DNA from: Romanomermis culicivorax
Taxonomy: Eukaryota > Nematoda > Enoplea > Mermithida > Mermithidae
Assembly (NCBI GenBank): GCA_963922205.1
Contig: CAWUHX010000112.1
Span: forward strand, 682,001-746,000
DNA: 64,000 nucleotides
Direction: 5' to 3'
Made by a program: the position numbers and the translations under genes. How positions within the stretch are numbered: the stretch's first letter is position 1; each line of letters starts with the position of its first letter. Under the pieces are notes generated by a model. It saw only the letters and a list, made by a program, of their open reading frames with translations. It had not been told where the DNA came from and made no database searches. This document shows, piece after piece, positions 6,244 to 63,206 of this stretch.

Positions 6244-6370
6244 ATGAAAAGTGATCACTGTTTATTATTAACTCTATTTTCGTTGACCACATTATCGGAT
6301 CTTACGTGTCAATCTTCGGACGTGATTACCGAGTTGGCAACATTTAGAAATAGAAGAAGCTTCAAGTCGA
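6244..6370 (+). CDS. Exon 1: initiator Met, signal peptide and RNRR site
   Basis: Short open segment of 42 codons plus one base, too short for most ORF filters. It begins MKSDHCLLLTLFSLTTLS, a typical signal peptide with a short charged n-region and a Leu/Thr-rich core, with likely cleavage near the LTC/QSS region. It is followed by RNRRSFKSS, which fits the furin-type pattern R-X-R/K-R. A GTAAGG donor at 6371 leaves phase 1, exactly the phase required by the next recognised exon at 8856. The frame hits TAG soon after the donor, as expected for an intron. This places the translation start of the large gene inside the window. The assignment rests on phase, the donor and the signal-peptide character; no upstream promoter or 5' UTR border could be defined. 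Confidence 0.7.
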
Positions 6371-8855
6371 GTAAGGATCATTAGTGAGAAAAATACTTTT
6401 CTGTTGAGTATTTTTGACGCTATCGTTAAGGGATGAGTTTATTGCGTTTGTTTTAGTTGCTCTGCTTCTTGATAAAAATTACTATGTATCTAATGGAAGT
6501 GGGCTGAGTGGGCGTCACGCCCTGCGAGAACCTACGCGAGGGAAAGAGTAAGAACTTTTCTAAACCACTGGTATTTGTCAGCATACTAAATTAACCATGT
6601 ACAATTTTTGAGAGTGAAATCGTATAGTAAGAGCTTCGTATAAATGCTTTGGACGACATCACTAATTTGTGGCATTTTTCTATTTAAACGCAGAATCAGA
6701 TCAGTCGACGATGCGCAGCTTTCTTTGAATTCTGAATTTGAATAGTAAAACAAAACTTGCGTTGACTTTTTTAATGCTTACAAATATTGATTATTTGAAG
6801 CTCTAACTACTGAGCTATTGATGTGCCAGATTTTTGATGTACGGGAACTATTAGGTCTCCAACTGCAGTCGGAGTTTAACAATCTCCGAAACTTAGACCA
6901 CAGACTACAGAACCACTGGGTCGCTGGTAGTTTCCAACCGAAGGTCAAATTTTTTTGAATATTTTGAATTACAACCTGGAATTGCTGAATATGTTGCACA
7001 AGCATCAAGATAACTGAAACTTGCCCATATGTTCGCAAGTTATGATTATAGTCTTCTCGTTTGGTTTATACTCAATCACTCCTTTAGACAGCAAGTTTGA
7101 GATTCATTCTGTGATTCGATCTCAAAAGTCACATTGCTCTGAACTGCAACACAAATTATTTTGCTGAGAACGCACTTGCGTAGTTTTTCAGTCCACCGAA
7201 AATCTAGTTGCCAGTTGCGCTATAAGAAGTTCAGTATCTTTTTGTGCACTGAATAACGACAATGTAATTTCATTATTTGAGAATGTGCTGCGGCTAAGAA
7301 TTCACAAGTCATTAGTATCATTCAAAACAACTCGTAATTTGTTAAAAATAAAATGACCTATGACACCATGAATAACGACCATTCCAAAAACTGGAGAACA
7401 TCTGGTTATAAAAAACAAACACAAAAATATCCAATCCCTCCGTTTTCACCGTTCAAGTATTACATCCCAGCTACAAATTCTAATCGCCCAGTGGAGCGTA
7501 ACAAATGGCGCCAAAGAGTAAGGCTTTCGCTTTTTTCGGGCCAAAAAATGATGTGAATGATGAATCGATAAAAATTAGGATGCGATGATTCAGTGCAAGA
7601 AATCTTGTACGATTAATTAAATTATTATGATCACGTTTGCAACTGTGATTACGAAAAACATTTTCGGATCAGTTTCATGCCATTGCTTTGCCTTGAAGGG
7701 ACTACGAAAAACAGAGCTTCGATGGCTTTGCGACATTTTTTACTTGTTAAACTATGTTTTTGATATTTTGATGGGTTTATTATTGTAAATTTTCACTCAA
7801 AGAATGTGTTTTAACTGGGGCCTACCATCATACATGCACAGCATAGAAATTCTGCTGGGGTCAGCCAGGACAGGTAATGGAATACAAATTTTTTAAGGTC
7901 TTTGATAAGTTTTCTAACATATAAGCAGCATATTCTTCAACTTACATTAGTCAGATAAGTGAAATTATTTGTTTAGACTGCACTTTTAAAAAGTTTTAAT
8001 ATTACATTTTTGGAATCATGTATGCTTTGTTTAGAAAAATTGTTAAACTCATCATTCATATTTTCATGATGACTTTCTCTTCTCTCTTGCTCATTTTCCT
8101 TCGTCATCATCTCTATCATTGCTAGCCTGCTAAGGGTCAGCAAGAATCTGCTGGGGGTCAATCAAGGTCTGCTGGGGGTCAAAACCCCCAAACCCCCCAC
8201 GTGCATGTATGCCTACCATCCACACCTTCATCGAAAGCAGTTTTGAAACACAAGCCGTTTTTTGGAGTTTTTGTTGTATAGCAGCGGATGTGGCCATGGC
8301 AGCGGATTTGCGTTAGGTAGAGATCATACACTACGTGGCGGATGTGCAGTAGGAAGCAGACATGAACTATAATCTGTTTTTCGTGGAAAAACTGGAGAGC
8401 AAATACTATTTCGTTTCCAAAATGCTCGGCTAAAGTATGTGTCGCATAAGACTCAAATTTATGAGCTTGTTCAACTGACCTATATTAATTTTTTGAGTAT
8501 AAAGTTGTAGAATAAAATCTTTAAATAAACGACTTTGAAGGCAGTACCAACTTATGTCACTTTTCAATAGTATTTCGTAAAAAACGGGCCATAACCCAAT
8601 CGAATCTACCGGGGACCAATGCAGTTATGCTATACAAAAGTCTGATTTTTCCGGAATGCTCACCAAGTGAAATTAAAATGTTCCTATTGTGGTTCTATGC
8701 ATGAAATTTACTTGCCTTGAGCAACGTGATATACAAGTGAATATTCATTGCTGCAATTTCATTAAGCAGTGTCAATATGTTTGCAGTTTGAGTCTAGATT
8801 TTTTTGCTATTCGTTGTATTGTTTTTTCGAGTCTGTATATTTTCCTTCTCTTCAG
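6371..8855. other. Intron 1
   Basis: About 2.5 kb with no further exon recognised. A stretch at 7800-8215 contains repeated GCTGGGGGTC motifs and ends in ACGTGCATGTATG, a terminus that recurs beside other G/C-tract repeats in the window. Short frames here (for example at 7353-7556) show no domain. Confidence 0.6.
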
Positions 8856-9021
8856 GACTGGAAAATTTGTTTCCCACGGAATATTCGGGTCGTTGCTTAA
8901 CTTCACCCAAGTCTGGTCGTGACATTTGCTACCCCGATTTGTCGAAATTAGATTATTCTTGCGTTAGTAAGAATCAACAAGGTCACAGATCAGTGCCGCC
9001 ACCCCGTATAATACACGGACA
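8856..9021 (+). CDS. Exon 2: Cys-containing linker and start of sushi domain
   Basis: Acceptor TTCTCTTCAG at the end of a pyrimidine-rich tract, donor GTAAGT at 9022. It starts in phase 1 and ends in phase 2. The translation holds three cysteines (GRCLTS, DICYPD, DYSCVS) and ends SVPPPRIIHGQ. The PPPxIxHG pattern is the usual opening of a sushi/CCP domain, after its first cysteine. The remainder of that domain lies in exon 3; the intron between them has phase 2, the only non-phase-1 border in the N-terminal half. The preceding 20 residues contain no recognised domain. Confidence 0.8.
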
Positions 9022-9094
9022 GTAAGTCTTTTTCAGTCTTTTTTCAATCCTGTGACGTGTAGTTCAGCAGAAAATTAGTTTATTGAAAAATACA

Positions 9095-9290
9095 CCTATG
9101 GGGAAGAAATAAAATATACTTGCTTAGATAGTTGTCAAGCTAGAAAAGGGAGTGGACTAGATTTTTACGAACTTGGATTAAAGTTTGAAAAATTCACTTT
9201 TGTGATATATTGGATTTTCATTAGTTCTCATTAAAAAATTTTTCATGTCTATGGAAATGTATATTCTGCAGCTTCGTGCATTTTGTCCTA
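9095..9290 (+). repeat. Family R1, forward copy
   Basis: Contains ATATACTTGCTTAGATAGTT, AGTGGACTAGATTTTT, ATTGGATTTTCATTAG and GTATATTCTGCAGCTTCGTG in R1 order. It is followed by its usual neighbour sequence (about 9360-9655) which resumes at 11212-11700 beyond a foldback insertion. Confidence 0.8.
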
Positions 9291-12444: not shown

Positions 12445-13490
12445 TTTTTCCCTTTTGAAATCATTGCAGTCGAAAACCCCTTTCACCAAGAATTCACGAA
12501 AAAAGCTTGTTAACACCCTGCATAGTTTTTTGTGTGAAGTGACCGTGACCGTCTCCATTGAATTCCCAATTGTCGAAGTGCCCTCCCCCAAAAAGACCAC
12601 GAAAATATCTTTGTTTTACACGCACGATAACTGGTCAAAATCCCCTTCCACCAAAAAATCACGAAAATACACTTATTTGCACCCGGGATTTTTTTGTGTA
12701 AAGTGACCGCACCTATTGAATTCCCCACGGTCGGAAACTCTTTCCACCAAAAAATCTTGAAAATACGCTTGTTTACGACTGGGATAATTTTTTTGCGTGA
12801 AGTGACCGCATCCATTGAATTCCCCGCCGTCGAAAACCCCTTATGACGGAAAATCTCAAAAATACGCTTGTTTACAGCGGGGATAATTTTTGTGTAAAGT
12901 GACCGCATGTATTGAATTCCCCGCGGTCAAAAACTCCTTCCACCAAAAACTAACGAGAATACGCCTGTTTACACCCGGGAGTATTTTTTTGTGTAAAGTG
13001 ACCACATCCATTGAATCCCCAATAGTCGAAAACCCCTTCTCCAAAAACACCACGGAAATACCTTCGTTTTACATGCAGGATAATCAGATAACACTACACC
13101 CGTTCCACAAAAAATTTTTTTGAACCCAAACGAAGGGGATTTTCCCGAACTTTGGTTACTCCCTCAAAAAATAAAAAAAGCATTTCGAGAGGACACGTGA
13201 TAGATGCACGGGTAAAAGTACCAAGGTCCAGGGATGCATATCCATTGAGGAACCTGCTGCAACTGGGGGCCCTAAAAAAGGCCGTTTTTGCATGTTTTTG
13301 GCGCCCCACCGAGCACCATTTGATTATAGACCTCCAATGACCTTTGCCACCCCTATGTTTGCCCATATGGCGGATATTATGCAAAAAACCTCATGTCTCT
13401 ATCTATAACTGTTTTTGCTCTGGGGGGGGGGGGTTAGTCAGATTTTAGGGGGCCAAGTATATTATAGGTTGACGCTACCGCGTCACCTAT
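12445..13490 (+). repeat. Minisatellite-bearing element, copy 1
   Basis: About six to seven units of roughly 96-100 bp (12445-13110), each with TCCATTGAATTCCCC, GTCGAAAACCCC, ATACGCTTGTTTACA and GGATAATTTTTTGTGTAAAG. A unique tail (13120-13490) follows with AAAGGCCGTTTTTGCATGTT, ACCTTTGCC and AAGTATATTATAGGTTG. Overlapping frames on both strands are by-products of the repeat. A run of 12 G lies at 13422-13433. Confidence 0.8.
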
Positions 13491-14867: not shown

Positions 14868-15082
14868 ATACAAGGCGCTAATTACGAAATTTCGACCGAA
14901 TCCCGCTTTCGCTCCAGATCAAGCATCGTCTATTGATCAACAAAATCAGCATGCGTCATTCAAACCGTTTTTGGTCGTACAATACGAATGTTACTCCGGT
15001 TATGAGTTCCTCGACGAAGCAGAATTTTTGTTCTGCAAAAATTACAATTGGCACCAAACTATGCCCGTGTGCGTTCCTTCTA
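14868..15082 (+). CDS. Exon 3: remainder of sushi (CCP) domain
   Basis: The frame needs one base to complete the codon left by exon 2. The acceptor CTATCTCTAAG ending at 14867 supplies it, and no later AG tested in 14868-14950 does. The exon first encodes about 34 residues without a recognisable motif (includes NPAFAPDQASSIDQQNQ), then VVQYECYSGYEFLDE, FLFCKNYNW and MPVCVPS. Those are the second, third and fourth sushi cysteines, with the conserved GY and the Trp between the last two cysteines. The donor TAGTAAGTTT leaves phase 1. The insert between HG and the VxYxC strand is longer than usual for a CCP module. Sushi modules mediate protein binding in complement, adhesion and synaptic matrix proteins; the partner here is unknown. 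Confidence 0.8.
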
Positions 15083-18149: not shown

Positions 18150-19995
18150 TTTAGTGGGATTCAACCATGCATGAAAACGTTTATACAAGCACATTGAAGT
18201 TTTAAATTCGGTCAACCTCATATCAAAGAAACAATAAAAAACAATTTTAAAGCTAGGAATTCTCATTTCGGATAAGTAAAAATAGGGTAAAACTGCATAG
18301 TACTTAAAACACGTTGTAAATAGAGTGCAAAGTGACCATATCCATTGAATTCCCCATGATCAAGAATCCCTCAACCAAAAAAATCGCAGAAATACCCTTT
18401 TTTACAAACAGGATAATTTTTTGTGTAAAGTAACTGCGTCTATTGAATTCCCCATGATCAGAAACCCAATCAATCGAAAATCGCGGAAATATGTTTGTTT
18501 ACATTAGGGATATTTTTTGAGTGACATGACTGCATCCATCGAATTCTCCATAGCCGAAAACGCCTCCCTCATTAAAAATCGCAGAAATAATTTTTTTACA
18601 CTTGGGATAAATTTTTGTGCGGGGTGATCGCACCTATTGAATTCTCTGTGGTCCAAGATCCCCCCCCCACCAAAATATGACAAAAATAAGCTTGTTTACG
18701 ACCGAGATAATTTTTTGTGTAAACCATTAAATTCTCTGCGGTCGAAAACGTTCCGCCAAAAATTCGCGGCAATACGTTTGTTTACACTCAGGATATTTTT
18801 CCGTGTGACATGGCTGCATCCATTGAATTCTCCATAGCCAAAAACCCCTCCCACACTGAAAATCGCAGAAATACATTCGTTTACATTTGGGATAAATTTT
18901 TGTGTACAGTGATCGCCTTTATTGAATTCTCTTGCTTACACCAGGGATAATTTTTCTATGTGTGAAGTGAACGCATCCGTTGAATTCCCCGCAGTCATGA
19001 ACCCATTCCACCAAATAATCATGAAAATACGCTTGTTTACACTCGGGGAATTTTTTGTGTAAAGTGACTGTGTCCATTAGACGCCCTATGGTAAAAAACC
19101 CCTAACCCAAAAATCGCGGAAATACGCTTGTTTACACTCGGGATAATTTCTTTGTGTACAGTGACCGCGTCCGTTTAATTCCCTGCAGTTGAAATACCCC
19201 CCCCAACAAAAAATCGCAAAAATAGATACACTTGACATTATTTTGTGTGTAAAGTGACCGCATCTATGAAATTAACCCGCAGTCGGACATTCCTCCCCAA
19301 GAAATCGCAGAAATATATTTGTTTACACTTGGGATAGTTTTTTTGTGTATAGAGATCGCGTTCGTTGAATTCTCTGTGGTCGAAAAGTCCTTCTACCAAA
19401 AAATCACAAAAATACGCTTGTTTACACCCGATATAATTTTTTTACGTAAAATAACCGCGATTTCCAGCGGTTTTTCCTGAAAACGCAATTTCCAACAATT
19501 TCATAAGGTCAAACACCCTTCGCCCCAAACATTATAGAAACCTTATTTCTCATATGGATCAACAGTTTTATGTTTTTCTAAAAAAATATTTTTTTAAACT
19601 CAAATGATGCGTAATGCAAAATTGTCAAATTCAGGGATTTCTTGGACTTTGGTCACTCATATAATTTGAACAAGTTGATATTTTCAAAAAATATGAAAAA
19701 GCGTCCGGTAAGTCACTTAGTAGATGGACGCTTCGAAATATTGAACTCGCAGATCAAATACCCAATGTGGAACCCACAAGTACATAATGCCCAAAAAAGG
19801 CCGTTTTTTGTATGTTTTTGGTGCCCCTCCGATCACCATTTGAATGAAGAGCCCCAACGACCTTTGCCCCCATGTATGCACCTAAGCCGGATATTATGCA
19901 AAAAACCCCTTCATCTGTGACCGTTTTGGCTCTAGAGGGGGACCCTAAAAAAGGGGGTCTAAGTATATTATAGGTTGGCGCGTTCGCGCCATCTA
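18150..19995 (+). repeat. Minisatellite-bearing element, copy 3 (about 12 units)
   Basis: Head 18150-18330 (CAATAAAAAACAATTTTAAAG). About twelve units of roughly 96 bp follow (18325-19465), one of them shortened near 18918-18977. Their TTGAATTC blocks recur at about 18343, 18439, 18535, 18633, 18725, 18820, 18918, 18977, 19073, 19170, 19264 and 19351. The tail 19470-19995 has AAAAGGCCGTTTTTTGTATG and CTAAGTATATTATAGGTTGG. Non-coding; possibly a non-autonomous Helitron-like or TIR-less element. Confidence 0.8.
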
Positions 19996-20475: not shown

Positions 20476-20547
20476 TAGCAGAGCGTGGTTTCGATCCACG
20501 GACCTCTGGGTTATGGGCCCAGCACGCTTCCGCTGCGCCACTCTGCT
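20476..20547 (-). tRNA. Initiator tRNA-Met (CAT)
   Basis: Read on the minus strand it is 72 nt, starting AGCAGAGTGGCGC and ending CTCTGCTA. The acceptor stem pairs 7/7 with the A1:U72 pair typical of eukaryotic initiators. The anticodon CAT is at 20513-20515. The T stem CGTGG/CCACG is perfect, with loop ATCGAAA, and A54 in place of T54 is another initiator hallmark. The internal A and B boxes are intact. TTTT on the minus strand (20468-20471 on plus) sits four bases beyond the 3' end, a Pol III terminator. It lies antisense within intron 3. No CCA is encoded. It looks functional rather than a SINE head. Confidence 0.95.
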
Positions 20548-21819: not shown

Positions 21820-21969
21820 ACTTCGTGGCTGAATATCGCCGGAAATCAAATCCGTGCCAAGAGAACAATGGCGGCTGCAGTCACGTCTGCAAACATGACG
21901 GTGGCTCGGGCGTACGTTGCGAATGTCTGACCGGTTGGGAACTACAAGACGATCAGAAGACGTGCTTGG
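21820..21969 (+). CDS. Exon 4: EGF module 1
   Basis: A symmetrical phase 1-1 exon of 150 nt between TTATTGTTAG and GTAAAG. It encodes NPCQENNGGCSHVCKHD, then GVRCECLTGW and QKTCLG. The six cysteines are spaced as in the EGF-like class found in LDL-receptor-like and fibrillin-like proteins (C-x5-NGGC-SHxC, CxC, final C). The NNGGCSHxC signature is the strongest evidence. I see no full Asp/Asn calcium-binding consensus at its start. It is a structural extracellular module, probably an interaction or spacer unit. Confidence 0.92.
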
Positions 21970-22379
21970 GTAAAGATATGCTGGTGTCGGTTGTAGTATT
22001 CAAACCTAAAGGATCATTTATACTTGCCGTTTTCGGCGGAACGGAAAGAATGCAATCGACGGAACGGAACGGAACCGAAATTTCCGTTCTGTTCGGTTCG
22101 GTTGGAGCTTGCCATCGGTTGTTCTCCGCAAAATCGCAATTATACTTTCCGATCGAAAAAGGAAATTGAAACTCAAACAAAAATTGCGCAATTTTATTAA
22201 TTTCTGTGTACAAAAATTTTTCTTGCATCCGTCTTTAAATTTTATTCGAGACGGAAATATCGCCCCGCAAAAAATTGGATTTCATTTTCAGACTGGTTTT
22301 TCTGACCATTGTTTTTCCCCAAATCTTGCTTTTTGAGGGGAAAAAATTTGGAAGAGTAAAGAAATTTTGGCGCTAGGAT

Positions 22380-24822: not shown

Positions 24823-27156
24823 AAATCGCTTTTCATTTTGCCCAAAAAATGTTCGAACTTTTATATTCTATAATGTTGTATTTGTAAATGTGAATGGGCG
24901 TTTGGGGGCGACTACGACCGATTTCTTGCCTCCTTGATCCATCAGGTCGGAGGACGGGGTGTAAAATCGGCAAGGGGAATTGATGTGCAGGAGAGATAGC
25001 CAGGGATCGACCTCAACGCCAGTGCTTCCCTGCGCCTGCTCTAAACGTCGGAATGACTCCTCACTCAGGGGCGAGAAGTCAAGAACAGAATAATACCTGC
25101 CCAGGGAATGCCTGACTAAAACTAGTCAGACAAGGTAACACACTTTTTGGACATAAATAAAACGCTTTCCTAACTAAACATTTATTTATATAACTCACCT
25201 AAAAATCGCCCCTTCCAAAAAAACATGACGTCTTACCAATATAAAAACCAGGCGAATAATGCATGGGCGAAAATTATAATTATTATATGAGAGGCGAGAC
25301 GCGCGAGAATAATCAATAATAAACACTAACTAATTCACAAAAACCTTCTTCTACAGTAACCCTCGCGCTGGGCCAGGTTGGGCATGGTTGGATGTGTTGT
25401 ACTTGTGGGCATTTTTATAAATTGACAAATCTATTGGAAAATCGTGAAAAATCAGTGGAAACACACTACAACAATAAGGCTGGAAAATGAATCTATGCTA
25501 CAGACTTAAAATTTTGGGGTGGGGTTCCAAAACTTTCGAAATTTTCGGGTTTTTTCAACGTGTTTTGGGGATTTTTGGGACTCCGCCGCAAAAGGCCACT
25601 TTTTTGCAAATAAAAATAAGAAATGGGATATTTCAATTGATAGAAACTGTTGTTGGAGGTTAATTTGCTCGGCCACACTTGACAGAAAATAACGACTATC
25701 ATATGCATACAGCGCTTGGCACCGGAAAATTTTCACCAAAATGGATCTTCTCGATTCTGTACTCCTAAATTTTTTTTCAAAAATAAAAATCTTGCCAAAA
25801 ACTTTTTTCTCATACATAAATTTTTTTCCTCAAAAGACCCCATTTGAGGGAAAACGGGTGCTTCGGGGGGGGGGGGGTAAACCCCAAATTTGGAGGGGGG
25901 TCGAAAAAACTCGAAAACTTTCCCAAAAAAGGCGGCCCAACCTAAAAAGCCTATGTAGCCAAGTTGGCGTATAAAAAGGCATTTATTGGCGTTTATGCGA
26001 GGCGTTTATTCGATACATGCTTTATGTAAATATACAAGCAAGTACTGCCACAAGAGTAGACACAGAAAAAAAATTGCTGCTTACCCAGCGCACCTATGGC
26101 AATGGCTAACATCAAGAAATTGATGAGCATTAGCAATTAGCATATGCAATGATGGTTTGCTTGAAGGCATAGAAGAAGAAGAGCAAGAATGAATATCAAT
26201 TATTGCTTAGTTTGTACCTTTGAAAAAATTAATTTTTTTACGTTTTTTGACTTTTTACGATTTGCAATAGGCACTCGTACTTCACATTTATAAAACAGTT
26301 TTTCTCACATTTGTCTGCCAGTTTGCATAACACTTTTTCAAACATAACATATCACTATTGCATGCTTTTTAAATTAAACTTTGGAAGAAGTTTTCTTTTT
26401 CCTTCATAAGTCCCTCTTACTTGAAATATTTTAAAAATTTCATGATGCAAATTTTAAAAAATACTATCTTTCAGAAACAGAAAAAGGAAAAAGTTATTAT
26501 GGATATTAATATTGTGGACATCATTTTGTTGACAATTGATAATGATAAGCTAATTTCTTTTCTAAAGGACACAGGATTAATCAAAAATCAAAGAATATAT
26601 CATGCTGATCAGTGCGGTTACAATATGGCCTTGGTAAAAAACGTCAACTTACTGATGGCTACGTCTGGAATTGCGGAAAATGCAAAGCACAAAAATCAAT
26701 TCGAGCTGATTCAATTTTTCAAAATAGCAAATTACCTTTTGGAACTGGTTTGTTGTTGTTGTTTCTTTTCTGCACTGATGTGCCACCATATTTGGCCAAC
26801 CGAATTATTGGCTCCCGTGCAACTTATGACACAATCCTTGAATGGTACAAGAAGTTTCCTGATTTTTGTTCAAAAATTCTTTTACAAAATCTATTGCTGT
26901 TCAATGACGACGTTTTTGTAGCATGCCACAATCATGAAATAGAGCTGCACGAGTCTTTCTTTGGCAAAAAGGCCAAAAATGACAGAGGTACAAGTAAACA
27001 AACCACAATGGTCTCTGGTATGGTACAAGCAGGTCAAAAATGTGTTTTTTTATGTCGCTCCAACAAATTCACGTGCCGAATTACTTCCACTTATACAAAA
27101 ACACGTGCCAACTAGTACAAAAATTTTCCATGACGGCTTGACGACCTATTCTAACC

Positions 27157-28092
27157 CAGGATTGGGATGCAGAAGCGCTACCTAGTGCACGAGCGCTATG
27201 GTAGTCACAAGCGCTACCAAATTAGAAAAAAACGCCATATACACTTTGTGTTGAAAGTGGTTTTATCATGCATCGTGTTTATAAAACAATGACAGTTGGA
27301 CAACAAAATGGTCCTGTTCAACAACAAAATCCGAAAATCCTACAGAAAAATAAAATCCACAGAAATGGTCATCGATGCGACCACCCTGTTACAATAACAA
27401 AATGTGGCACACTTCATGTTATCGTCGACGTGATATTCCTGTATAAAACAATGTTTTATGCAAAAATCTGAACAATGACCTAATGAAGATGGTGATAGTA
27501 ATAAAATCATCAAATCATAGACAGAAGTTTAGGAATCAGAAAAAAACAAGATACCAGACCAGACAGCATTCCTTTACTCACATTGTACACAATGGACACG
27601 GAAAACTGTCTTAAGTATTAAATTTAAAAAATCGATGGTTCAATGCGATTATGTCAATTTAGATAATCGTATTCACAATGCGCGCTTGAATTTTATTCAA
27701 ATTACGGGTGACCTTTGGCAGATCAATAATTTTGATGTCAATGCTTCACAGGTTGATGTTTTAAATTTTTTGATGCACAAAATTCATCATTTTTTCCGTT
27801 ATATGTGTCATTTAGTGGTTAAACAATTGCATTTTGTTTTCCATGATGATAACTTGTAAGATATAATATGAAAAAAATTGTTTCACAATCATTCCTATTT
27901 TCGTGATTAATGCAGAGGCAAAACGAGTGTGAAAATTCTGCTTCAGCACACAACGTATATAGGATATTTTTTTCCAATTTGGTAGCGCTTCTGACCATGG
28001 CAGCACTCGTGCACTAGGTAGGGCTCGTGTACTAGGTAGCGCTCGTGCACTAGGTAGTGCTCGTGCACTAGGTAGTGCTCGTGCACCATACC
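27157..28092. mobile_element. TIR element inserted in the Merlin transposase
   Basis: It splits the Merlin frame. The inner ends form inverted repeats: GCTACCTAGTGCACGAGCGC plus GAAGCGCTACCAAATT-type blocks at left, mirrored by AATTTGGTAGCGCTTCTGAC and CTCGTGCACTAGGTAG at right. CTAACC borders both sides (27151-27156, 28093-28098). Interior frames (27268-27471, 27635-27859) show no recognised domain. The right end carries an expanded 18-bp tandem repeat. Confidence 0.75.
28005..28087. repeat. 18-bp tandem repeat at TIR end
   Basis: About four to five copies of GCACTAGGTAGTGCTCGT with single-base changes, an expansion of the terminal motif of the inserted element; it accounts for the apparent RALPSARALPS frame on the minus strand. 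Confidence 0.85.
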
Positions 28093-28561: not shown

Positions 28562-28874
28562 ATGCCAAGTAGAAACCATAAAAGCCTTAAACGCCAAGGC
28601 CTGAAACGCCATATTTGTCTTAAACGCCATAAAAGCCTTAAACACCATAAACGCCATAAACGCCTTAAACGCCATAAACGCCTTAAACACCATAAACACC
28701 TTAAACGCCTTAAACGCCATAAACGCCTTAAACGCCATAAACGCCTTAAATGCCATAAACGCCTTAAACGCTTTAAACGCCGTAAACGCCTTAAACGCCA
28801 TAAACGCCTTAAACGCTATAAACGCCTTAAACGCCATAAACGCCTTAAACGCCGTAAACGCCCTAAACGCCATA
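28562..28874. repeat. 9-bp minisatellite (AAACGCCWT)
   Basis: About 34 near-identical 9-bp units alternating TAAACGCCT and TAAACGCCA. Because the unit is a multiple of three without stops, both strands are open (KRHKRLKRH on plus, FKAFMAFKA on minus). No start context or homology supports a protein. Confidence 0.95.
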
Positions 28875-30179
28875 TCATAGAAAGAATTGTATGCTTTCAA
28901 TGACGGAGGCTTTCTCGGTTGGGCCAAAAAGGCAGTTTTTTCCAAATTTTCTCCAATTTTTCTGAGTCTGGGGGGGGGGGGTTGAGAAAAGGATTGGCCA
29001 AGTCGAGGGGGAGGTCACCCCCCATTCCACCCCCAAATTACAGGTATATATGACTTTAAACTCGAAACTTTCAATATTTTCCTTCGATTTAAATGAATTA
29101 ACACCTCTTAAAATATCAGAGTGTTTGGAAAAGCTCACAAACATTTGAATAAAGCGTATTTGAGCATTTATAGGCGAAAAAAACGACTTGGGGAAAGATA
29201 GGGAAGCAAATTTTGGCCCCTTACCGCATTTGGAGAAAGATGGGCGGGAAAAAACCGTGATTGCCACGGAAAATTGCGTATGAGAACAAGAAAAGTAGTT
29301 CCGATTCGTTAAATTTGCCAAAAAAATTTTAAAGCATCAAAAAACATGCGAAATTCGCTCAAATATCGGAAATAAAAATTGAATTTTTCCGTCGGAGTAC
29401 GCGTGCAGACGGAGCATTCAAACCGAAATTTTTTAGCACGACGCAATCGAAATGCTTCGGTTCGGTCGACTTCGGTTGACTTCATTTATATTTTTCATCA
29501 TCCTTCCGCGCGATGAAAACTGCTATACTCTCTCAACGCGCGAAAAAACTGCTTCCGTTCCGTTCCGCCGAAAAAGGCAAGTATAAATGACCTTTAAGTT
29601 TAAACGCGGCCTCGGTTTTAGCTTTAAAGCCGAAGTTCACCTGAACTTGACGTCGGTTTTAACTTTTATGCGTATCAATAAAAATCTCGAGCTCTGTTTC
29701 AACTAAACCTCAGGTTCAAGTCCGAGCTTCTCATCCACAGAGAAAAAACGCAGAAAATATATTCATTTCTCTTCGTGCAACGACCAACACCCATTGTTTT
29801 GCTCTTTCACACTAGAAGTCATATAAAAACGTGTAGAAGTCCTACTGTAGCCAATTTTTTCATGAGGAAATAATGAAGAGAATCGTTTGTGGACATGTAC
29901 AGAATGCAAACAAGAGCTCGGACTTGAACATACTACCTCACCTACCAGGTTTAACTTGTACATTGCGTTGAAACCGAGCTCGAGTTTTTAAACCTGAGCT
30001 CGTTTTTTTAAACGGTGATTTTTTATTGAAACAAAGTAATGAGTTCGAGATTTAATTCGAGCTAGAGTTTATATTCCCTTCATTGCAACTGCTAAACTTG
30101 ACGCTCGGCTTTGAATGCTGGCGCTATTGCGTCGGCTCTAGAAAAGTAGCGCTGCAATACGCTTTTGCTCATACTTTAG

Positions 30180-30302
30180 AATTGGACCTTTGCCAATCGA
30201 ACAACGGCGGCTGCAGTCATTTTTGCGAAGTTTTAGATTCGGAATTAGTGTGTTCATGCCCGGACGGATTTATGTTGAGGTCGGATGAGAAGACTTGCAT
30301 AG
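30180..30302 (+). CDS. Exon 5: EGF module 2
   Basis: A symmetrical phase 1-1 exon of 123 nt (acceptor CTCATACTTTAG, donor GTAATA). It encodes [17 protein letters not shown], then [10 protein letters not shown] and EKTCIG. All six EGF cysteines are present and the NNGGCSHxC core matches exon 4, so the two probably arose by tandem exon duplication. The intron between them (8.2 kb) has since been filled by transposons. This module is about ten residues shorter than EGF 1, which has a Gly-rich loop between the fourth and fifth cysteines' neighbourhood. Confidence 0.92.
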
Positions 30303-32708: not shown

Positions 32709-32885
32709 AGGAGATTTATGAAATTTCGGACTTTCTGCCCGAAAAATCCGGCATGTGCCCGCAGGTGGCGTTCGGCTTTCCTGATCAAAAATGTGCCAGC
32801 ACTTGCAGAAGAGATCAAGATTGTGTGGGCAAGACTAAATGTTGCAGCAACGGATGTGCTAACGTCTGTTTAGAACCAGAGCCAG
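32709..32885 (+). CDS. Exon 6: WAP four-disulfide core domain
   Basis: A symmetrical phase 1-1 exon of 177 nt (acceptor TCCATTCTAG, donor GTAAAA). It encodes EKSGMCPQV, then QKCASTCRRDQDCVGKTKCC, then SNGCANVC. The eight cysteines and the CxxDxxCxGxxKCCxxxC core match the WAP fold. WAP domains act as small protease inhibitors or antimicrobials, or as structural modules next to FN3 in anosmin-like proteins. An acidic leader (EEIYEISDFLPE) precedes it. The donor is only a few bases from the left end of a nested transposon block, so this splice site sits at the border of inserted DNA. Confidence 0.95.
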
Positions 32886-38363: not shown

Positions 38364-38480
38364 GCAGTGATCTCATTCAAAGGCCTATATTAGAATGCAC
38401 GTCCACAGAGGGCTGTCGTTGCGTTGTTATCGATGAGTCTCGGCAAAGGTGCCAATGCCCGCTTGGAGTTGTATGTCAGT
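38364..38480 (+). CDS. Exon 7: small Cys-rich, EGF-like module
   Basis: A symmetrical phase 1-1 exon of 117 nt between TTCTCTTTTCAG and GTAAGT. It encodes ILECTSTEGCRCVVIDE then RCQCPLGVVCQ. There are six cysteines in the order C-x5-C-x-C-x9-C-x-C-x6-C, resembling a degenerate EGF or a follistatin-type half-module, but the spacing is not canonical. It is accepted as coding on its ideal splice sites, phase and position between WAP and Ig1. No exact domain name can be supported. Confidence 0.82.
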
Positions 38481-39018: not shown

Positions 39019-39330
39019 TAACCAGATCAGCGCCAGATGTCACGATTTCACCGTCCGGCGTGGCCGAAATACGACCCGGCGCCTCCTTGAATTTAACCTG
39101 TTCAGCTAGCGGATTTCCGCACTCCAATCTAACGTGGTTTCGCGACTCCTTAGTCATGGAAGCGCAAGAAAAATCAGTTGGTGCTAGCGGCTCCAGCGGA
39201 AGCCATCACTACGAAAAAACGACCACAAAACGTTTGCTGATCAAAGAACTGTTCAAGTCAACGGTTTTCTCTTGCGAAGCAGTCAACGACGTGGGGTCGA
39301 GCGTCGCTGACGTCGAAGTCGTCGTTACAG
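39019..39330 (+). CDS. Exon 8: Ig domain 1
   Basis: A phase 1-1 exon of 312 nt (acceptor AAATTTTTACAG, donor GTAACG). Ig signatures: APDVTISPSGVAEI (strand A), SLNLTCSASGFPHSNLTWFR (Cys and Trp core), STVFSCEAVNDVGSS (second Cys). The usual D-x-G-x-Y before the second Cys is replaced by S-T-V-F-S-C, a feature shared by the other Ig domains of this gene and so a marker of one internally duplicated family. It carries a longer Ser/Gly-rich loop (GASGSSGSHH) than its sisters. A competing AG at 39024-39025 would break the phase. Confidence 0.93.
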
Positions 39331-40065: not shown

Positions 40066-40163
40066 GTCCTGGTTCTCCCCCGAACAACATCCAAGCTAAA
40101 ACCACGGGAACGAGCGTGACAATTAGATGGGCTCCACCCACGTTGCCCAACGGCAAAATGAAG
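40066..40163 (+). CDS. Exon 9: FN3 domain 1, first half
   Basis: Acceptor AATCTTTTCAG, start phase 1, end phase 0. It encodes GPGSPPNNIQAKTTGT, then VTIRWAPPTLPNGKMK: the Pro-rich A strand and the B-strand Trp of a fibronectin type III fold. Its length of 98 nt equals the equivalent exons of FN3-3 and FN3-4. The frame stays open into the downstream intron and beyond, so a simple ORF view fuses it with exon 10. The sister domains place an intron exactly after the PNGxxx residues. Confidence 0.88.
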
Positions 40164-40223
40164 GTTTATTCGAATTTTACAAAAGTTGACCAAAAGTGTC
40201 ATCTCACCACTGATGATTTTCAG
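40164..40223 (+). other. 60-nt in-frame intron inside FN3-1
   Basis: This segment runs from GTTTAT to TGATGATTTTCAG. It lies where the other three FN3 domains have introns of about 2-2.5 kb, and removal joins PNGKMK to GYQVYY as in its sisters. It is 60 nt long and lacks a stop, so retention would add 20 residues (VYSNFTKVDQKCHLTTDDFQ) to a loop without changing the frame. The insert includes a potential N-glycosylation site (N-F-T) and an extra cysteine. The donor GTTTAT is weak, which makes retention plausible. Confidence 0.75.
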
Positions 40224-41185: not shown

Positions 41186-41547
41186 AAGTGCCTCCAATCA
41201 TCAATGTCTTGGAAGGCAGCGTGGTCGAACTGGAGCCTGGCGAAGGGGTCAACTTAACCTGCGTTGTTCTGGATGGCTTCCCGGCACCTCACTTGGCCTG
41301 GTATCACGAAGAAAGCCGCTTGGAAGAACCGTTCGAAACTAAAAAATTGACCCGAATAGTTAGTAAAGTGTTCGAATCCACCTCCTTCGAATGTCGAGCC
41401 CATAACTCCAAAGGGGCGGCCAATTTTACTGTCAAAGTCGACGTACAAGGACCGGGTGCTGCCCCAGGTCAGATACAGCACAGGGTCGACGGCAATAATT
41501 TGGAGTTGTCGTGGGGTTCGCCGCAGTATCCAAACGGCCTCATTAAA
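41186..41547 (+). CDS. Exon 11: Ig domain 2 fused to first half of FN3-2
   Basis: Acceptor GCTATTGTTATTCAG, donor GTAAGA; phase 1 to phase 0; 362 nt. The Ig part reads EVPPIINVLEGS, GVNLTCVVLDGFPAPHLAWY and STSFECRAHNSKGAANF. It runs straight into GPGAAPGQIQ, LELSWGSPQYPNGLIK, the first half of an FN3. In all other modules Ig and FN3 halves are separated by a phase-1 intron immediately before the GPG motif; here that intron is missing, most simply a precise intron loss. The open frame extends far upstream of the acceptor by chance; the Ig begins at the acceptor. Confidence 0.93.
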
Positions 41548-41652: not shown

Positions 41653-43736
41653 GGCCCACTTGCACTAACGACTTATGAACTTTTCTAAAGGTTTATAAGT
41701 TCATGAGTCTTAAAATTCGCTTGCAATAACGCGGACGCACGTGAATTTAAAAAAAGTTCATTAGTTCTTAGGTGTGGATAATTGGCTTGCATCAATGTGT
41801 GCGCCTGTGAACCTATAGAAGGGTTCAGAAGACTTTTAGAAAGGCCCAAAATTCACCTATAGAAAAGTTTGGCTTGTACCAAAATGTATAAGTTGATATG
41901 CTTCAAAGGTCATAGGCGACATAATATGGAGTTTTGAGTCGGAAGAGACCTTTGATAAACGTTTATTTCGTAAAATATATGCATATATGAAAATGTTTAT
42001 GAGCAGTAGAAGCGACCATACATGCACACGCACATGACCCTCTGAAGATTCTTGCTGACCCTCAGCAGATTGAATCATGGCCCAACATTGATCAGGAAGA
42101 TGATAAAGGAAAATAAAAAAAAGAAAAAGAAATCATAAGAATGGAAATGATTCTGTAGTTAAACGGATTTTTTTAACAAAGCGTAAATACTTGATTCCAA
42201 AGGAGTAACATTTAAACTGTAAAAAGTGCTGACCAAGCGAATAGTTTCACATATTTGACTAATATAGATGGAAGAATATGATACTTGGATGTTAGAAGAC
42301 CTTTCTTTTTTGTTATGAAAAAATTCTATCCCGCCCTCCTCTCCAGGCTGACCTCCAGCAGAATTTCCATGCAGTGCGTGTATTTCCATGCAGTGCGTGT
42401 ATGCGACGATGAAAATGATAATAATGAACCACTACCGAAAATACGCCTTGTGCGTCCTCGAATTAATTTTGATTTGGAAAATTTTGAAGATCGACTTAGG
42501 CAGTAGTTGTACAAAGATGGAAAATATACTCACATGCTTGGGCCGAAAAATTTCTTAGAATTCTGATTGGAATTTTCCTCTTAGCCCCAGAAGAACAGTT
42601 ATTGTTAGCTACTAGATTTTACGCAACTAAAGCATTTATGAAAATTTTTGGCGATACCCATGTGGGCACACGAGTTTACTGTATCAGAAGAACTTCGAAA
42701 AGTTACGCGTTGCTAATCGAACATTATTTTGATTCGATTATATGTTAGCCGGATAATGTAATCAAATTTTCAAACAGCTTGTATAACAAAGGAAAATACC
42801 ATATGTCATTGATTGAATAGATGGCACCCATATTCCTGTAAAACCATCACCGGAGAATGAGCCTTCAATTGGTAAATAGACGTGGTACTCATTTGTTAAA
42901 CTACATGATGGTTTGTGGCAAACTATGAGTTTTATTATGTTTCAAGACAGCCAGGTAATGTTAATGATGCTCGGGTATTTCGTAACAGCAAATTACTTGA
43001 TGAGGGTTGTTCGTCCATTGGAGACGATACTATTTCAACAGATTCTGAATATGCTTGTGCATATAAATTTCTTATGCCAGTTTTGAAGTCTGAAAATAAA
43101 TTTACCGCATCAGAAAGATTGGAGAATAATTGAAAATTCATCTGGAATTTTGAAACAACGATTTGCGTGTCTGCAGTACATACACGTTCATCCTACATAT
43201 GCCGGAAAAATTACGACTGCTTGCTGCATTTTGCATAACTTAATTCTTCAGAATGAACCGACTAAACTGCTTGAAGGGGAGAGTGATCATGAAGATGAAC
43301 CGGATCGGATCGGTTGGATGAGTTTGATGTTGATGAATTTAACAGAGATGAAAATGAAACTTCCAGGGCTAAAGTAATTTTAACCTATTTTTCTTCTTAA
43401 AGGTTTTCGTATTTTTTTCTGTGCATTTTTGAGAATTATTAATGAATAATAACTAGTTTTAGAAGTTTTACTATCTTAATTAAAAGAATCATTTAGATTA
43501 TTCACAAAGCATCGACCACAATCATTCAAAAGGATTTTGCAAAAAATGTTCTACACCTTGAATCGACTTTTCTAAAAGACTTTGGTGAAATTGAACGCCC
43601 ATGAGTCTGTGAAGGTCGCCTTTGATATTGTGAAGGGTTGACTTTGGTGTACGCGAGTACCTATGAACTTATGAAAGGCGCCCATGATCGTATAAACAAT
43701 TGAACTTATGAACTTATGTGTTGGTGCAAGCGGGTC
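41653..43736 (+). mobile_element. PIF/Harbinger element 1
   Basis: TIRs GGCCCACTTGCACTAAC and GTTGGTGCAAGCGGGTC, flanked by CAG on each side (41650-41652, 43737-43739). A second inner ACTTATGAACTT motif is mirrored at both ends. It carries a broken transposase at about 42340-43378. It sits in intron 11, between the two halves of FN3-2. Confidence 0.9.
42340..43378 (+). pseudogene. Harbinger (HARBI1-type, DDE_Tnp_4) transposase remnant
   Basis: N-terminal piece PRINFDLENFEDRLRQ; catalytic start IDGTHIPVKPSPENE (about 42812); GNVNDARVFRNSKLLDEG with the second Asp; C-terminal LKQRFACLQY-like segment and ACCILHNLILQNE. These are diagnostic of HARBI1 nucleases. Several frameshifts and stops separate them, so it is dead. 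The MADF/Myb-like partner gene of Harbingers was not found. Confidence 0.92.
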
Positions 43737-44082: not shown

Positions 44083-44278
44083 GGTTACATAGTTTATTAT
44101 ACAACTGACCCATCGTTATCGCTAGAAAGTTGGAGCGCGGAAATGATACACGGTCGACAATCTACGATTTTGAAAGATCTGTTACCCGTGACGACCTACC
44201 ATTTGAGGATCAAAGCCTTTAATGAGAAAGGATCCGGTCCTTTGAGCGACGTATTCTTGGTCAAGACCAATTTGAGAC
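44083..44278 (+). CDS. Exon 12: FN3 domain 2, second half
   Basis: Acceptor TTCTTCTTCTTCAAG, phase 0; donor GTATGA, phase 1; 196 nt. It encodes GYIVYYTTDPSLSLESW, then LLPVTTYHLRIKAFNEKGSG and PLSDVFLVKT, all typical FN3 strands. It continues exon 11 across an intron largely occupied by a decayed Harbinger transposon. Confidence 0.92.
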
Positions 44279-48986: not shown

Positions 48987-49274
48987 ATCAACCACCCAAA
49001 GTCCGAATCGTCGAACCTGCGACGGCCGGCCAAATCAGAATCCGCCCGTTCGGTAACGTCAATCTTACCTGCGCCGCTAGCGGTGTCCCCGAACCGTCAG
49101 TCAGTTGGAAACAAGACGGCGAAATTTTACGTTCGTTCGGCAGACAAGGACCGGCCGCCAATGAAACGTCCAAATCGGTCTTCATTCAACGTTTGGTGGA
49201 AAATACGGCCTTCGTTTGCGAGGCCATCAATCAAATCGGTTCCGATACGGCCAAGGTCGACGTGGTCATCATGG
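48987..49274 (+). CDS. Exon 13: Ig domain 3
   Basis: Acceptor TTTTCATCCACAG, donor GTAGGG; phase 1-1; 288 nt. It encodes QPPKVRIVEPATAGQIRI, VNLTCAASGVPEPSVSWKQD and NTAFVCEAINQIGSDTA: two Ig cysteines, the core Trp and the family-specific x-A-F-x-C ending. The longest open frames overlapping this stretch are in other frames and on the opposite strand, so this exon is easily missed; the domain match and phases settle it. Confidence 0.93.
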
Positions 49275-51135: not shown

Positions 51136-51233
51136 GGCCAGGATCGCCACCGGAAAACTTAGATGTCAACGTGCACCAAAATAATGTAAACATGCAATGG
51201 AAACAGCCAATTATTACGAATGGAATCGTAACG
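51136..51233 (+). CDS. Exon 14: FN3 domain 3, first half
   Basis: Acceptor TTAACAACTTTAG, donor GTAAGC; phase 1 to 0; 98 nt. It encodes GPGSPPENLDVNVHQ then VNMQWKQPIITNGIVT, with the GPGSPP opening and B-strand Trp shared by the sister domains. Confidence 0.92.
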
Positions 51234-53229: not shown

Positions 53230-53475
53230 GGTTATAACATCTATTACACGACTAATCAAAGTTTACCCATCAAAAAATGGAACATGATACCGGTACACAG
53301 CACAGCTCGTCAAACAACTTTCAAGCTCGAAAATTTGGAAGAGGAAGCTCTTTATTATATCCGGGTCGCTGGAACGACTATTTTGGGTGAAGGCGTACAT
53401 ACGCAAACTCACCAAGCCTCCACACAACGTAGAACTTACGCTCCAGAGGCGACCCTTACGCCGCCAGATTCGAAG
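53230..53475 (+). CDS. Exon 15: FN3 domain 3, second half, plus linker start
   Basis: Acceptor TTTTTCTCAAG; donor GTTAGT; phase 0-0; 246 nt. It encodes GYNIYYTTNQSLPIKKW, then LENLEEEALYYIRVAGTTIL, then THQASTQRRTY and ATLTPPDSK. The first 60-65 residues finish the FN3; the last 15 or so form a linker absent from other modules. The usual L-x-P-x-T-x-Y is altered to LEEEALYY. The phase-0 end differs from the phase-1 end of the other FN3 domains and is resolved by the following linker exon. Confidence 0.88.
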
Positions 53476-56602: not shown

Positions 56603-56840
56603 GTGAGTCTGAAGTTCGATCAAGAGTACGCGGTCACGTGCACGGCCGATGGCTACCCACAGCCTAAATTGGTATGGTACAGGGACGGACAACCGGTTGG
56701 TTTCCGGGCCATTACTGACGATGTGAAATCCATATCGGCCGTACTCACTGTTCAAAACCTTTTAACGTCCAGCCTTTTCCAATGCAAGGCCGACAATGAT
56801 TTGGGGTCGTCCTTGAAAGAGGTGTTCATCGAAATATTAG
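56603..56840 (+). CDS. Exon 18: Ig domain 4
   Basis: Acceptor TGTCATTCCAG, donor GTAAGC; 238 nt ending in phase 1. It encodes VSLKFDQEYAVTCTADGYPQ, PKLVWYRDG and SSLFQCKADNDLGSS, with both Ig cysteines and the core Trp, and the S-L-F-x-C ending typical of this gene. Strand A is missing from this exon (see the predicted microexon). The acceptor overlaps a perfect donor-like string CAG/GTGAGT, which may affect its recognition. Confidence 0.88.
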
Positions 56841-58734: not shown

Positions 58735-58832
58735 GACCAGGATCTCCGCCAAACAACGTGAAGTATATGCCATATAGTACGAACATTGCATTAGTGTGGG
58801 ATAAACCAGAGATACCCAACGGCGAAATCACG
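58735..58832 (+). CDS. Exon 19: FN3 domain 4, first half
   Basis: Acceptor TTTTTACTTCCAG, donor GTAAGT; phase 1 to 0; 98 nt. It encodes GPGSPPNNVKYMPYST then IALVWDKPEIPNGEIT. Closest to FN3-1 and FN3-3 first halves in length and opening motif. Confidence 0.93.
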
Positions 58833-60807: not shown

Positions 60808-61006
60808 GGCTATGAAATAGTCTACACGCTCAATCCCGAAGATCACTTCAATAATTGGTCAAGAGTTACGTTGGATAACGGTCAAAAAGAGCACAAACTA
60901 ACCGGTTTAGAGCCTTTACGACCGTATATAATACAAATAAGGGCATTCAACGATAAAGGTCACGGTCCGTGGACGCCGCCATTCGTGGTCACAACTGGAC
61001 GTGCAG
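60808..61006 (+). CDS. Exon 20: FN3 domain 4, second half
   Basis: Acceptor AGTATTTTCTCAG, donor GTAATC; phase 0 to 1; 199 nt. It encodes GYEIVYTLNPEDHFNNWSRV, then LTGLEPLRPYIIQIRAFNDK and GHGPWTPPFVVTT. Typical FN3 C-terminal half. Its acceptor lies about 200 bp downstream of a nested Harbinger insertion. Confidence 0.94.
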
Positions 61007-62945
61007 GTAATCTGGAACGAAAATCTTATTTTGGATCCCAAGTAGTGCAGGGTGATCTGCAAAAATCTGGACCAGGATTAAAAATATTGAAAGAAAAAGT
61101 GATTTCCCGAATCGGAGTTTTATGTTTTTATGTTGAAATTCTTCGATTTTACATTTTTGCTTGTTTTTTCATTTCTTTGTTAGTTATTCGTTATTTTCGT
61201 TGGATAGTCAAGTCTTTTTACTATCGGAGTCGATTCTTATGGACTTAGACTTCCGACTTCCGAGGTCTGAGTCGTCAAAAATCAACGATTTTTATACGTT
61301 TCACTTCGTATTCTCCAACTTTTTCCGATCTCCACGAATTCGAAATTCCAAGTGATTCCACCTTGCGAAACTCCATTTTAACAAGTATCGGTTCGTACGT
61401 TCTGAAAGTTTTTGACTTGGATTGTTCTAAGACTTCGAAGATTCAGCTGAAAAAAATATTGAATTTCTTTCTATTGAAATATTAGTTACAAATTTTTACA
61501 AGTCTATTATTTGTGCATAAAAACGCACACTAACATAGTCTTCGTTACAATAATCAACGATTGTGGTATGTTTGATGAAGGATCAAGCTAGAACACGTCA
61601 TTTATTTTTTTATTTTCTGGCCATATCAAGAACTGATTTTCAAAGTGCACATAGTGAACATTATTTTTTTGGATGGCAGTAGAATTTAAAAAAAAACATT
61701 TGATTATGTTGGTCAATTGATGGAACCGAGTTCACTTTGAGCGACATGCACGTCAATAGAATGTAAATATTAATTTCAAAGAAAAAGCGTAAAAAAAACG
61801 TAAATATTTTTCATGTAATGTGATAATTGTGAACTTGAGATTGACACACTTTCTGAAATGTTTGACCTTTGCTATAATAAGTAAAAAATTAATATCATAA
61901 ATCAAAATGAGATATGCAATGTAATTTTATGTGCTGAACTTCGCTGTAACATTCACGTCGCCTGAAAAATGAAAAGCCTCATAGTTACAGTATGATAAGT
62001 TCGAAAATTTGTAATTTTTTAACCCTTTTAATTAATTATACTTGAGATGATATAATTCAGCTCTGGGAAGACGTTATTCAATTGATAAATATTCATTTTA
62101 CTCCGCATATATGAACCTGTCCTCTTGTCTAAAAACCATTCTTGCCGTGCGCTTTATATTTTTTCAACTGTTTAAGCAAACAGAAAATCAGGTGGAAAAA
62201 GAAAAACATCTTGATTGTGCGCACAGCCGAACATCTTCTCATAGGATGCTGCAGAATTTAAGTTTTTTTATTGTATGAGGCATGGAGTACAGTAGATGTA
62301 GAAGTTTTATCACGATTTTCTTACCCAGTAAGGAGCTGCACTGCTTACGTTCAAAGCAACAAATCTGAAAATTGAAAAAATCTCCTTGATGCACATTACC
62401 GAGTAGTATTAAATAGGATGCCTCAAAATTTTATTGTGTTGCTTGATTACTTCTTCAATCTTGCAATGCTCGAAATGTACTAAATATGACCTGTCTCAAC
62501 AAATTCTTAAAGCCCTGCTGTGTGTATACGAACCGATACTTGGAAACTTGGAAAATATTTTTTTTGAGAGAAAAGATAAATAGAGAAAAAACGACTTGCA
62601 AATTTTAATTTATTTTACGAACTAAAAATTGAAGGCCTTGGAAACCTTGAACTTGGAATCTGAAGTTTAAAATAATTACAAACTGGTCACATGGTGACGG
62701 ATTCAATCAGATTTCAATTTAAGAAAACGTTAATGTGAATTTTCTAGTTTATCCTTCGATTCAGATTCAGTTATGCAATGACGTAACGAAAATTTTTGAT
62801 GCCCAAAAATTTTTATCATCTGGCTAAGTTTCTTTATTAATTCTGCACATATGTCTTTCGCTATCCGAGCCATCTAGCGCCTTAGTCCTTTTGACACCTA
62901 TGCGGCAGTGTATAACTCAGAAATAATGATTTTTTCTGATCGCAG
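61007..62945. other. Intron 20
   Basis: 1.9 kb, no repeat or gene recognised. 61240-61450 is a less AT-rich stretch (GACTTCCGACTTCCGAGGTC) without a domain. Confidence 0.6.
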
Positions 62946-63206
62946 AAACTCCTCCCGTCATCACTTTGACCCCTAAACAGTCACTCGTAGCCGTTGAACC
63001 CGGTTCCTCGATCAATTTGACTTGCTCTGCCGACGGTTTTCCACAACCGACAGTCTTATGGTTCGAAGGAAAAAATCCAGTATCCTACGACTCCGGTTCG
63101 GAAATTACGATATTAAAGGAAAATATACTCGAACCTACTGTTTTCGAATGCAAGGCGACCAATTTGTTCGGCGTCCAACAGAAAAGCATAACAGTGGATG
63201 TGACAG
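62946..63206 (+). CDS. Exon 21: Ig domain 5
   Basis: Acceptor TTTCTGATCGCAG, donor GTAAAC; phase 1-1; 261 nt. It encodes TPPVITLTPKQSLVAVEPGS, INLTCSADGFPQPTVLWFEG and PTVFECKATNLFGVQ. The most canonical Ig of the series; closest to Ig1 in the TVFxC ending. The phase-1 donor implies at least one more module beyond it. Confidence 0.94.

What the first reader, a model, noticed from the sequence alone, without database searches (positions are those of the whole stretch)
6244..63206. Unusual protein architecture: SP-sushi-EGF-EGF-WAP-Cys-(Ig-FN3)n
The exons seen give an order of modules I cannot match to a named family: anosmin-like proteins have WAP plus FN3 but no sushi, EGF or Ig; hikaru genki has Ig and sushi; WFIKKN has WAP and Ig with Kazal, Kunitz and NTR. 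The chain is open at the right edge, so the C-terminus (transmembrane, kinase, phosphatase or none) decides its role. It may be a lineage-specific receptor or matrix protein built by phase-1 exon shuffling.
Basis: partly seen in the sequence, partly recalled or inferred. Interest (0 to 1): 0.85.

Follow-up and report, generated by a model that had tools for sequence, protein, structure and literature searches.

The report
Start of worm matrix gene dig-1
This stretch of a mosquito-parasitic worm genome holds the front part of dig-1 (mesocentin), a known giant matrix protein that keeps nerves in place, here carrying two extra small modules not seen in the relatives examined.

Summary
The exons are real. 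A 19-exon GT-AG chain (6244-63206) reads 1,222 codons without a stop, in the reported order: signal-peptide-like start, sushi-like module, EGF, EGF, WAP, six-Cys module, (Ig-FN3)x4, Ig. The species is Romanomermis culicivorax: its predicted protein A0A915J0Y4 agrees with exons 1-10 at 556 of 559 aligned residues.

The claim that no named family fits is wrong. Chromadorean nematodes carry one protein with sushi-EGF-Cys-(Ig/FN3)n, named dig-1 in Pristionchus and mesocentin in Dirofilaria. Profiles from 18 of them recognise the N-terminal modules in order. C. elegans DIG-1 is a 13,000-residue matrix protein that maintains neuron position and fasciculation, so this is probably not a receptor.

What differs is an insertion of one EGF plus one WAP between EGF and the Cys module: that linker is 0-1 residues in 22 of the 24 chromadorean relatives where it could be measured. 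An expected FN3 between FN4 and Ig5 was not found. No hit labelled as another enoplean was returned, so whether the insertion is mermithid-only is open. A new variant of a known kind.

The parts
6244..6370 (+). exon 1: signal-peptide-like start and linker (ends phase 1)
   Evidence: identical to start of P0001; hydrophobic stretch residues 6-24
8856..9021 (+). exon 2: Cys box (GRC..GRDICYP..LDYSC) and first half of sushi-like module
   Evidence: DIG-1 NT profile 36.3 bits; no Pfam hit alone
14868..15082 (+). exon 3: second half of sushi-like module
   Evidence: NT profile 46.2 bits; Pfam Sushi 18.7 bits, sub-threshold
21820..21969 (+). exon 4: EGF 1 (FXa-inhibition type)
30180..30302 (+). exon 5: EGF 2 (extra relative to chromadorean DIG-1, or exon 4 is)
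32709..32885 (+). exon 6: WAP domain, 8 cysteines (not seen in chromadorean DIG-1)
38364..38480 (+). exon 7: six-Cys module, counterpart of the CC module of DIG-1 (P0001 uses another junction to exon 8, about 4 bases further on)
   Evidence: (23.6 bits)
39019..39330 (+). exon 8: Ig 1
40066..40163 (+). exon 9: FN3 1, first part
   Evidence: the following 60-base intron is open in frame, spliced out in P0001
40224..40419 (+). exon 10: FN3 1, second part
41186..41547 (+). exon 11: Ig 2 and FN3 2 first part
44083..44278 (+). exon 12: FN3 2 second part
48987..49274 (+). exon 13: Ig 3
51136..51233 (+). exon 14: FN3 3 first part
   Evidence: Pfam fn3 15.2 bits, sub-threshold alone
53230..53475 (+). 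exon 15: FN3 3 second part and start of Ig 4
   Evidence: Pfam fn3 22.1 bits, sub-threshold alone
56603..56840 (+). exon 16: Ig 4 remainder
58735..58832 (+). exon 17: FN3 4 first part
   Evidence: tblastn to P0002; no Pfam hit alone
60808..61006 (+). exon 18: FN3 4 second part
62946..63206 (+). exon 19: Ig 5; gene continues beyond the window
   Evidence: best match is DIG-1 Ig5, 64.9 bits

Best explanation
The window holds the 5' part of the Romanomermis culicivorax orthologue of dig-1 (mesocentin), a giant extracellular-matrix protein. Shown: one in-frame GT-AG exon chain; N-terminal modules characteristic of DIG-1 in the DIG-1 order; an Ig/FN3 array; a species-matched predicted protein. Inferred: as in C. 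elegans it is secreted into the matrix around neurons and other tissues, and its Ig/FN3 rod helps hold cells and neurite bundles in place mechanically. It carries an inserted EGF plus WAP between the EGF and Cys modules, which I take to be a lineage-specific extra adhesive or glycan-binding (or protease-inhibiting) unit.
For: P0001, an R. culicivorax predicted protein, joins sushi-like, EGF, WAP, Cys, Ig and FN3 modules and agrees with exons 1-10 (556 of 559 aligned residues). P0002 covers 87% of the draft at 1.4e-163, 27% identity. P0072 is named dig-1, P0100 Mesocentin, P0069 Mesocentin by inference. DIG-1 profiles: NT 82.8 bits, EGF 41.4 and 44.1, CC 23.6, Ig5 64.9 against 40.8 for the next. 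The CC profile hits no protein outside the orthologue set among the 99 held then. C. elegans DIG-1 has Ig, FN3, EGF, VWA and one sushi (passages).
Against: Only 8 of 13 comparable modules match best at the same position; FN1, Ig3, FN3, Ig4 and FN4 match another repeat better. The EGF, Ig and FN3 profiles are not specific: they also hit proteins outside the set strongly. The NT profile hits five outside proteins, the best two at 24.9 and 20.2 bits. FN5 and the N-terminal RCVLSADRASHFCG box of chromadoreans were not found. The central repeats and VWA domains lie outside the window. No transcript was seen. P0001, itself a prediction, contains extra stretches between the EGFs and before WAP that my model omits.
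Confidence: 0.93

Rival explanations
1. The gene is dig-1, but the extra EGF and/or WAP exons are not part of the main mRNA (cassette, rarely used or pseudo-exons).
For: Chromadorean relatives have no room for them; no RNA seen; P0001 includes doubtful stretches in the same region.
Against: Both are phase 1-1 exons with GT-AG ends, complete cysteine sets (6 and 8), strong Pfam scores, and are kept in P0001.
Confidence: 0.1
2. Two neighbouring genes: a small sushi-EGF-EGF-WAP secreted protein and an Ig/FN3 adhesion protein.
For: Long introns (up to 8.2 kb); no transcript seen.
Against: Relatives hold sushi-EGF-Cys and Ig/FN3 in one predicted protein; P0001 joins both halves; phases join.
Confidence: 0.03
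3. A receptor tyrosine phosphatase (LAR-type), as the automatic name of P0002 and P0071 suggests.
For: Names; PTP-delta/LAR among the best solved-structure matches of the Ig/FN3 part.
Against: No tyrosine-phosphatase domain in P0002 by Pfam or in the listed Pfam domains of P0071; none of the five proteins outside the set that the NT profile hits is named LAR or PTP, and the CC profile hits none.
Confidence: 0.02
4. An unnamed lineage-specific protein newly built by exon shuffling.
For: No WAP is listed for any of the 30 chromadorean relatives, and the linker leaves no room for one in 22 of 24 measured.
Against: The rest of the order is that of DIG-1.
Confidence: 0.02

Closest known systems
DIG-1 / mesocentin (C. 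elegans K07E12.1 and nematode orthologues)
   Same: Cys box and sushi-like module; FXa-type EGF; six-Cys module; Ig/FN3 array, same order
   Different: Romanomermis has a second EGF and a WAP before the six-Cys module; FN5 and the extreme N-terminal Cys box were not found in the window; several repeats match out of register
Anosmin-1 / KAL-1
   Same: WAP together with FN3 in an ECM protein (recalled); best solved-structure match of this WAP is anosmin-1, 26.9 bits, barely above nawaprin at 26.5
   Different: no sushi, EGF or Ig (recalled); overall architecture unrelated
LAR-type receptor tyrosine phosphatases
   Same: Ig and FN3 domains
   Different: no sushi/EGF/WAP/Cys N-terminus (recalled); no tyrosine-phosphatase domain in the relative P0002
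Hemicentin
   Same: giant matrix protein with Ig, EGF and VWA (recalled)
   Different: no alternating FN3 (recalled); weaker hits than the dig-1 relatives

Membership tests
DIG-1 / mesocentin | N-terminal Cys box plus sushi-like module | tested here: met
   NT profile 82.8 bits on the joined module; among 1,670 six-frame ORFs the two exons score 46.2 and 36.3 bits, the next 6.3; outside the set the best of 99 proteins is 24.9 bits
DIG-1 / mesocentin | FXa-type EGF after the sushi-like module | tested here: met
   one extra EGF present; the EGF profile is not specific
DIG-1 / mesocentin | six-Cys module just before Ig1 | tested here: met
   23.6 bits, best of 22 profiles; 18.1 bits in the six-frame ORFs, next 9.1; no hit outside the set among 99 proteins
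DIG-1 / mesocentin | alternating Ig/FN3 array in register | tested here: inconclusive
   array present; 8 of 13 comparable modules best at the expected position; FN5 not found
DIG-1 / mesocentin | central PTD-type repeats and VWA domains towards the C-terminus | not testable with these tools
   outside the window; own-genome search not answered
DIG-1 / mesocentin | secreted, no membrane anchor | tested here: inconclusive
   the most hydrophobic 19-residue window is the N-terminal one, 1.17 on the hydropathy scale; C-terminus unseen
Anosmin-1 / KAL-1 | WAP plus FN3 without Ig, EGF or sushi (recalled) | tested here: not met
   Ig and EGF present
LAR-type receptor phosphatase | intracellular tyrosine phosphatase domain | not testable with these tools
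   outside the window; absent from the relative P0002 by Pfam

The most novel reading that the evidence does not exclude
Mermithid DIG-1 has absorbed the WAP module that C. elegans supplies in trans through KAL-1/anosmin. In C. elegans dig-1 alleles suppress kal-1-dependent branching (PMC4199693, passages), and the top solved relative of this WAP is anosmin-1, narrowly. The inserted EGF-WAP would make one matrix protein do both jobs, a fusion that hints at a physical DIG-1/KAL-1 partnership in other worms. Against it: one separating allele (dz136) is predicted to affect a repeat region, not the N-terminus.
Probability: 0.1. Interest if true: 0.6.

Novelty: new variant of a known kind. Interest (0 to 1): 0.3.

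Why it matters
It places a dig-1 orthologue in an enoplean (clade I) nematode, so the giant nerve-maintenance matrix protein is likely older than the Chromadorea. It also suggests that its N-terminal tip can gain or lose modules. The EGF-WAP insertion gives a testable link to anosmin biology. For annotation, the automatic name protein-tyrosine-phosphatase on some orthologues (for example P0002) looks mistaken.

Tried and rejected
C25G4.10 and IGEG proteins (recalled leads): IGEG papers describe Ig-EGF ligands (listing); C25G4.10 appears only as a name in a Trichinella antigen table; neither name showed among the hits that carry a name. Dropped.

First E2-E3 junction (acceptor at 14950) broke the frame; P0001 showed the longer exon 3, and the corrected chain reads through. 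A sushi-like reading at about 9080-9150 had no acceptor in phase that I could see and was dropped.

P0001's extra stretches (window 21970-22085, 26463-26669, 30062-30179, 31906-32067) have no counterpart in the chromadorean linker; I left them out of the model as probable prediction artefacts, not proven.

Structure prediction of P0001: mean pLDDT 53. Most blocks of NT, EGF1 and Ig1 are above 70; EGF2, WAP and the six-Cys module are below 50. The alignment used placed other proteins' letters under the insert (about 17 of 19 rows under WAP), that is, it was misaligned there, so the model says nothing for or against those modules. Foldseek listed Ig/FN3 proteins in its top 50.

Enoplean relatives: three protein searches (cut-offs 1e-3, 1e-20, 1e-60, the last two scoring only the candidates sharing most words) returned no hit labelled as an enoplean besides P0001; some hits carry no organism label and clusters show one name. 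C. elegans DIG-1 itself is outside the search's length range. Search of the window's own genome did not complete.

In print: searches for mesocentin, dig-1 with whey acidic, dig-1 with Trichinella and basement membrane, Romanomermis with dig-1 listed five, one, zero and zero papers. Of these six I opened one (PMC6267963, one passage); I saw no description of a WAP in DIG-1.
Full report
OBSERVATION. Stop-to-stop reading of the + strand and Pfam scans of 16 ORFs holding candidate exons (4 intronic ORFs were scanned besides) gave EGF (FXa-inhibition) twice, WAP, Ig and FN3; 11 of the 16 held a family above its cut-off, the sushi half scored 18.7 bits against 20.7, and the rest were weaker or empty. 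Splice sites were placed by eye on the sequence and assembled. The final chain has 19 exons, 18 GT-AG introns of 60 to 8,210 bases, 1,222 codons and no stop. Only 1 of 38 alternative frames of these exons is open, so the exons are not chance. Exons 4-8, 13 and 19 are phase 1-1; each FN3 is split by a phase-0 intron.

SPECIES. The best database hit, P0001 (UniRef A0A915J0Y4, Romanomermis culicivorax, 751 aa), begins with the same letters as exon 1. Over exons 1-10, 559 residues align and 3 differ: one in the WAP exon (Gly against Ser) and two at the exon 7/8 junction, where P0001 splices differently. R. culicivorax is an enoplean, clade I parasite of mosquito larvae (PMC10879605, passages).

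IDENTITY. The next hit, P0002 from Heligmosomoides, covers 87% of the draft. Searching with it returned 17 further chromadorean relatives (P0068-P0084), one named dig-1 (Pristionchus) and one Mesocentin by inference (Nippostrongylus); a profile search added 12 more (P0100-P0111), one named Mesocentin (Dirofilaria). In a Loa loa paper Mesocentin is listed with dig-1 as its C. elegans name (PMC6267963, one passage). C. elegans dig-1 is described as a 13,084- or 13,100-residue ECM protein with N-terminal Ig and FN3 repeats, EGF-like domains, VWA domains and one sushi (PMC8544517 and PMC1904197, passages). The automatic name protein-tyrosine-phosphatase is unsupported for P0002: Pfam finds no such domain.

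TEST OF ORTHOLOGY. From an alignment of 18 chromadorean sequences I cut 22 domain profiles (10 to 18 sequences each) and scored each Romanomermis module against them. The NT module scored 82.8 bits, the EGFs 41.4 and 44.1, the six-Cys module 23.6, each best with its own counterpart. Among the repeats Ig1, Ig2, FN2 and Ig5 were best at the expected position; FN1, Ig3, FN3, Ig4 and FN4 were not. In total 8 of 13 comparable modules agree; the WAP matches nothing (2.8 bits at best). Ig5 prefers DIG-1 Ig5 strongly (64.9 against 40.8). As controls: among 1,670 six-frame ORFs of the window the NT profile scores exons 2 and 3 at 36.3 and 46.2 bits, the next 6.3; the six-Cys profile scores exon 7 at 18.1, the next 9.1. 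Of the 99 proteins held then, 19 are the orthologue set; outside it the six-Cys profile hits none and the NT profile hits five (24.9, 20.2, 10.7, 7.1, 5.4 bits). The EGF, Ig and FN3 profiles tested hit outside proteins strongly and are not specific. The non-repeat modules therefore carry the orthology. The repeats appear remodelled: Romanomermis FN4 is nearest chromadorean FN3 (71.1 bits), and Ig4 nearest Ig3, though narrowly (38.9 against 38.4 for Ig5).

DIFFERENCES. Of 30 chromadorean relatives examined, the distance between the EGF and the six-Cys module could be measured in 24: 0 or 1 residue in 22, 11 and 16 in two; in six one or both modules were not found. In Romanomermis it is 70 residues plus a second EGF. 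No PF00095 is listed for any of the 30 (these lists also omit the weak sushi). FN5, between FN4 and Ig5 in chromadoreans, was not found: between exons 18 and 19 no FN3 profile tested (FN1-FN7) scores above 4.2 bits apart from the ORF of exon 18 itself. The RCVLSADRASHFCG box, seen in 8 of the 9 chromadorean sequences that cover that stretch, was not found in the window (best 8.1 bits, E 1.7, elsewhere). Whether the EGF-WAP pair was gained in the Romanomermis line or lost in Chromadorea cannot be told, because no hit labelled as another enoplean was returned.

MECHANISM. By analogy with C. elegans (established there, inferred here): DIG-1 is an ECM component required for dendrite fasciculation and for maintaining axon and cell positions, with basement-membrane defects in mutants (PMC8544517, start of abstract and passages; PMC3400552, passages). 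One paper calls its role purely maintenance, another reports a developmental role too. The Ig/FN3 rod is suited to adhesion. The start is signal-peptide-like and no other strongly hydrophobic stretch is seen up to residue 1,222. No RGD occurs in this part, whereas C. elegans DIG-1 has two. The WAP could bind matrix glycans, as anosmin does (recalled), or inhibit proteases; its best solved relative is anosmin-1 at 26.9 bits, nearly tied with nawaprin at 26.5. In C. elegans, five dig-1 alleles from one screen suppress kal-1-dependent branching (PMC4199693, passages). This makes a fused DIG-1/anosmin-like function worth testing but does not show it.

LIMITS. No transcript evidence; C-terminus outside the window; own-genome search did not complete; C. 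elegans DIG-1 itself not retrievable by the search's length limits; Benard 2006 and Burket 2006 seen only as citations.

Noticed in passing
window 20476-20547 (-): A tRNA-Met (CAT) gene lies on the opposite strand inside intron 3 of dig-1.
   Followed up: partly
window 26943-27182 (+): Remnant resembling an ISXO2/IS1595-type transposase, below the Pfam cut-off (17.8 against 27 bits). P0001 takes a doubtful exon from 26463-26669 near it.
   Followed up: partly
window 42909-43374 (+): DDE_Tnp_4 transposase remnant split over two frames inside intron 11 (26.8 and 28.7 bits, cut-off 24.8).
   Followed up: partly
window 12633-13084, 28579-28871, 34462-34596, 36498-36906: Tandem arrays in introns: a 99-base unit (a similar 97-base unit at 18340-18551), a 9-base unit, a perfect 48-base unit and an AT-rich 8-33-base array.
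   Followed up: no
window 40164-40223: The 60-base intron inside FN3 1 is open in frame and far shorter than the other introns (538 to 8,210 bases); retention would add 20 residues.
   Followed up: partly
P0001 (A0A915J0Y4), residues about 220-350 and 392-445: The public gene model of this protein probably contains spurious stretches and stops after FN3 1, losing the rest of the array.
   Followed up: partly
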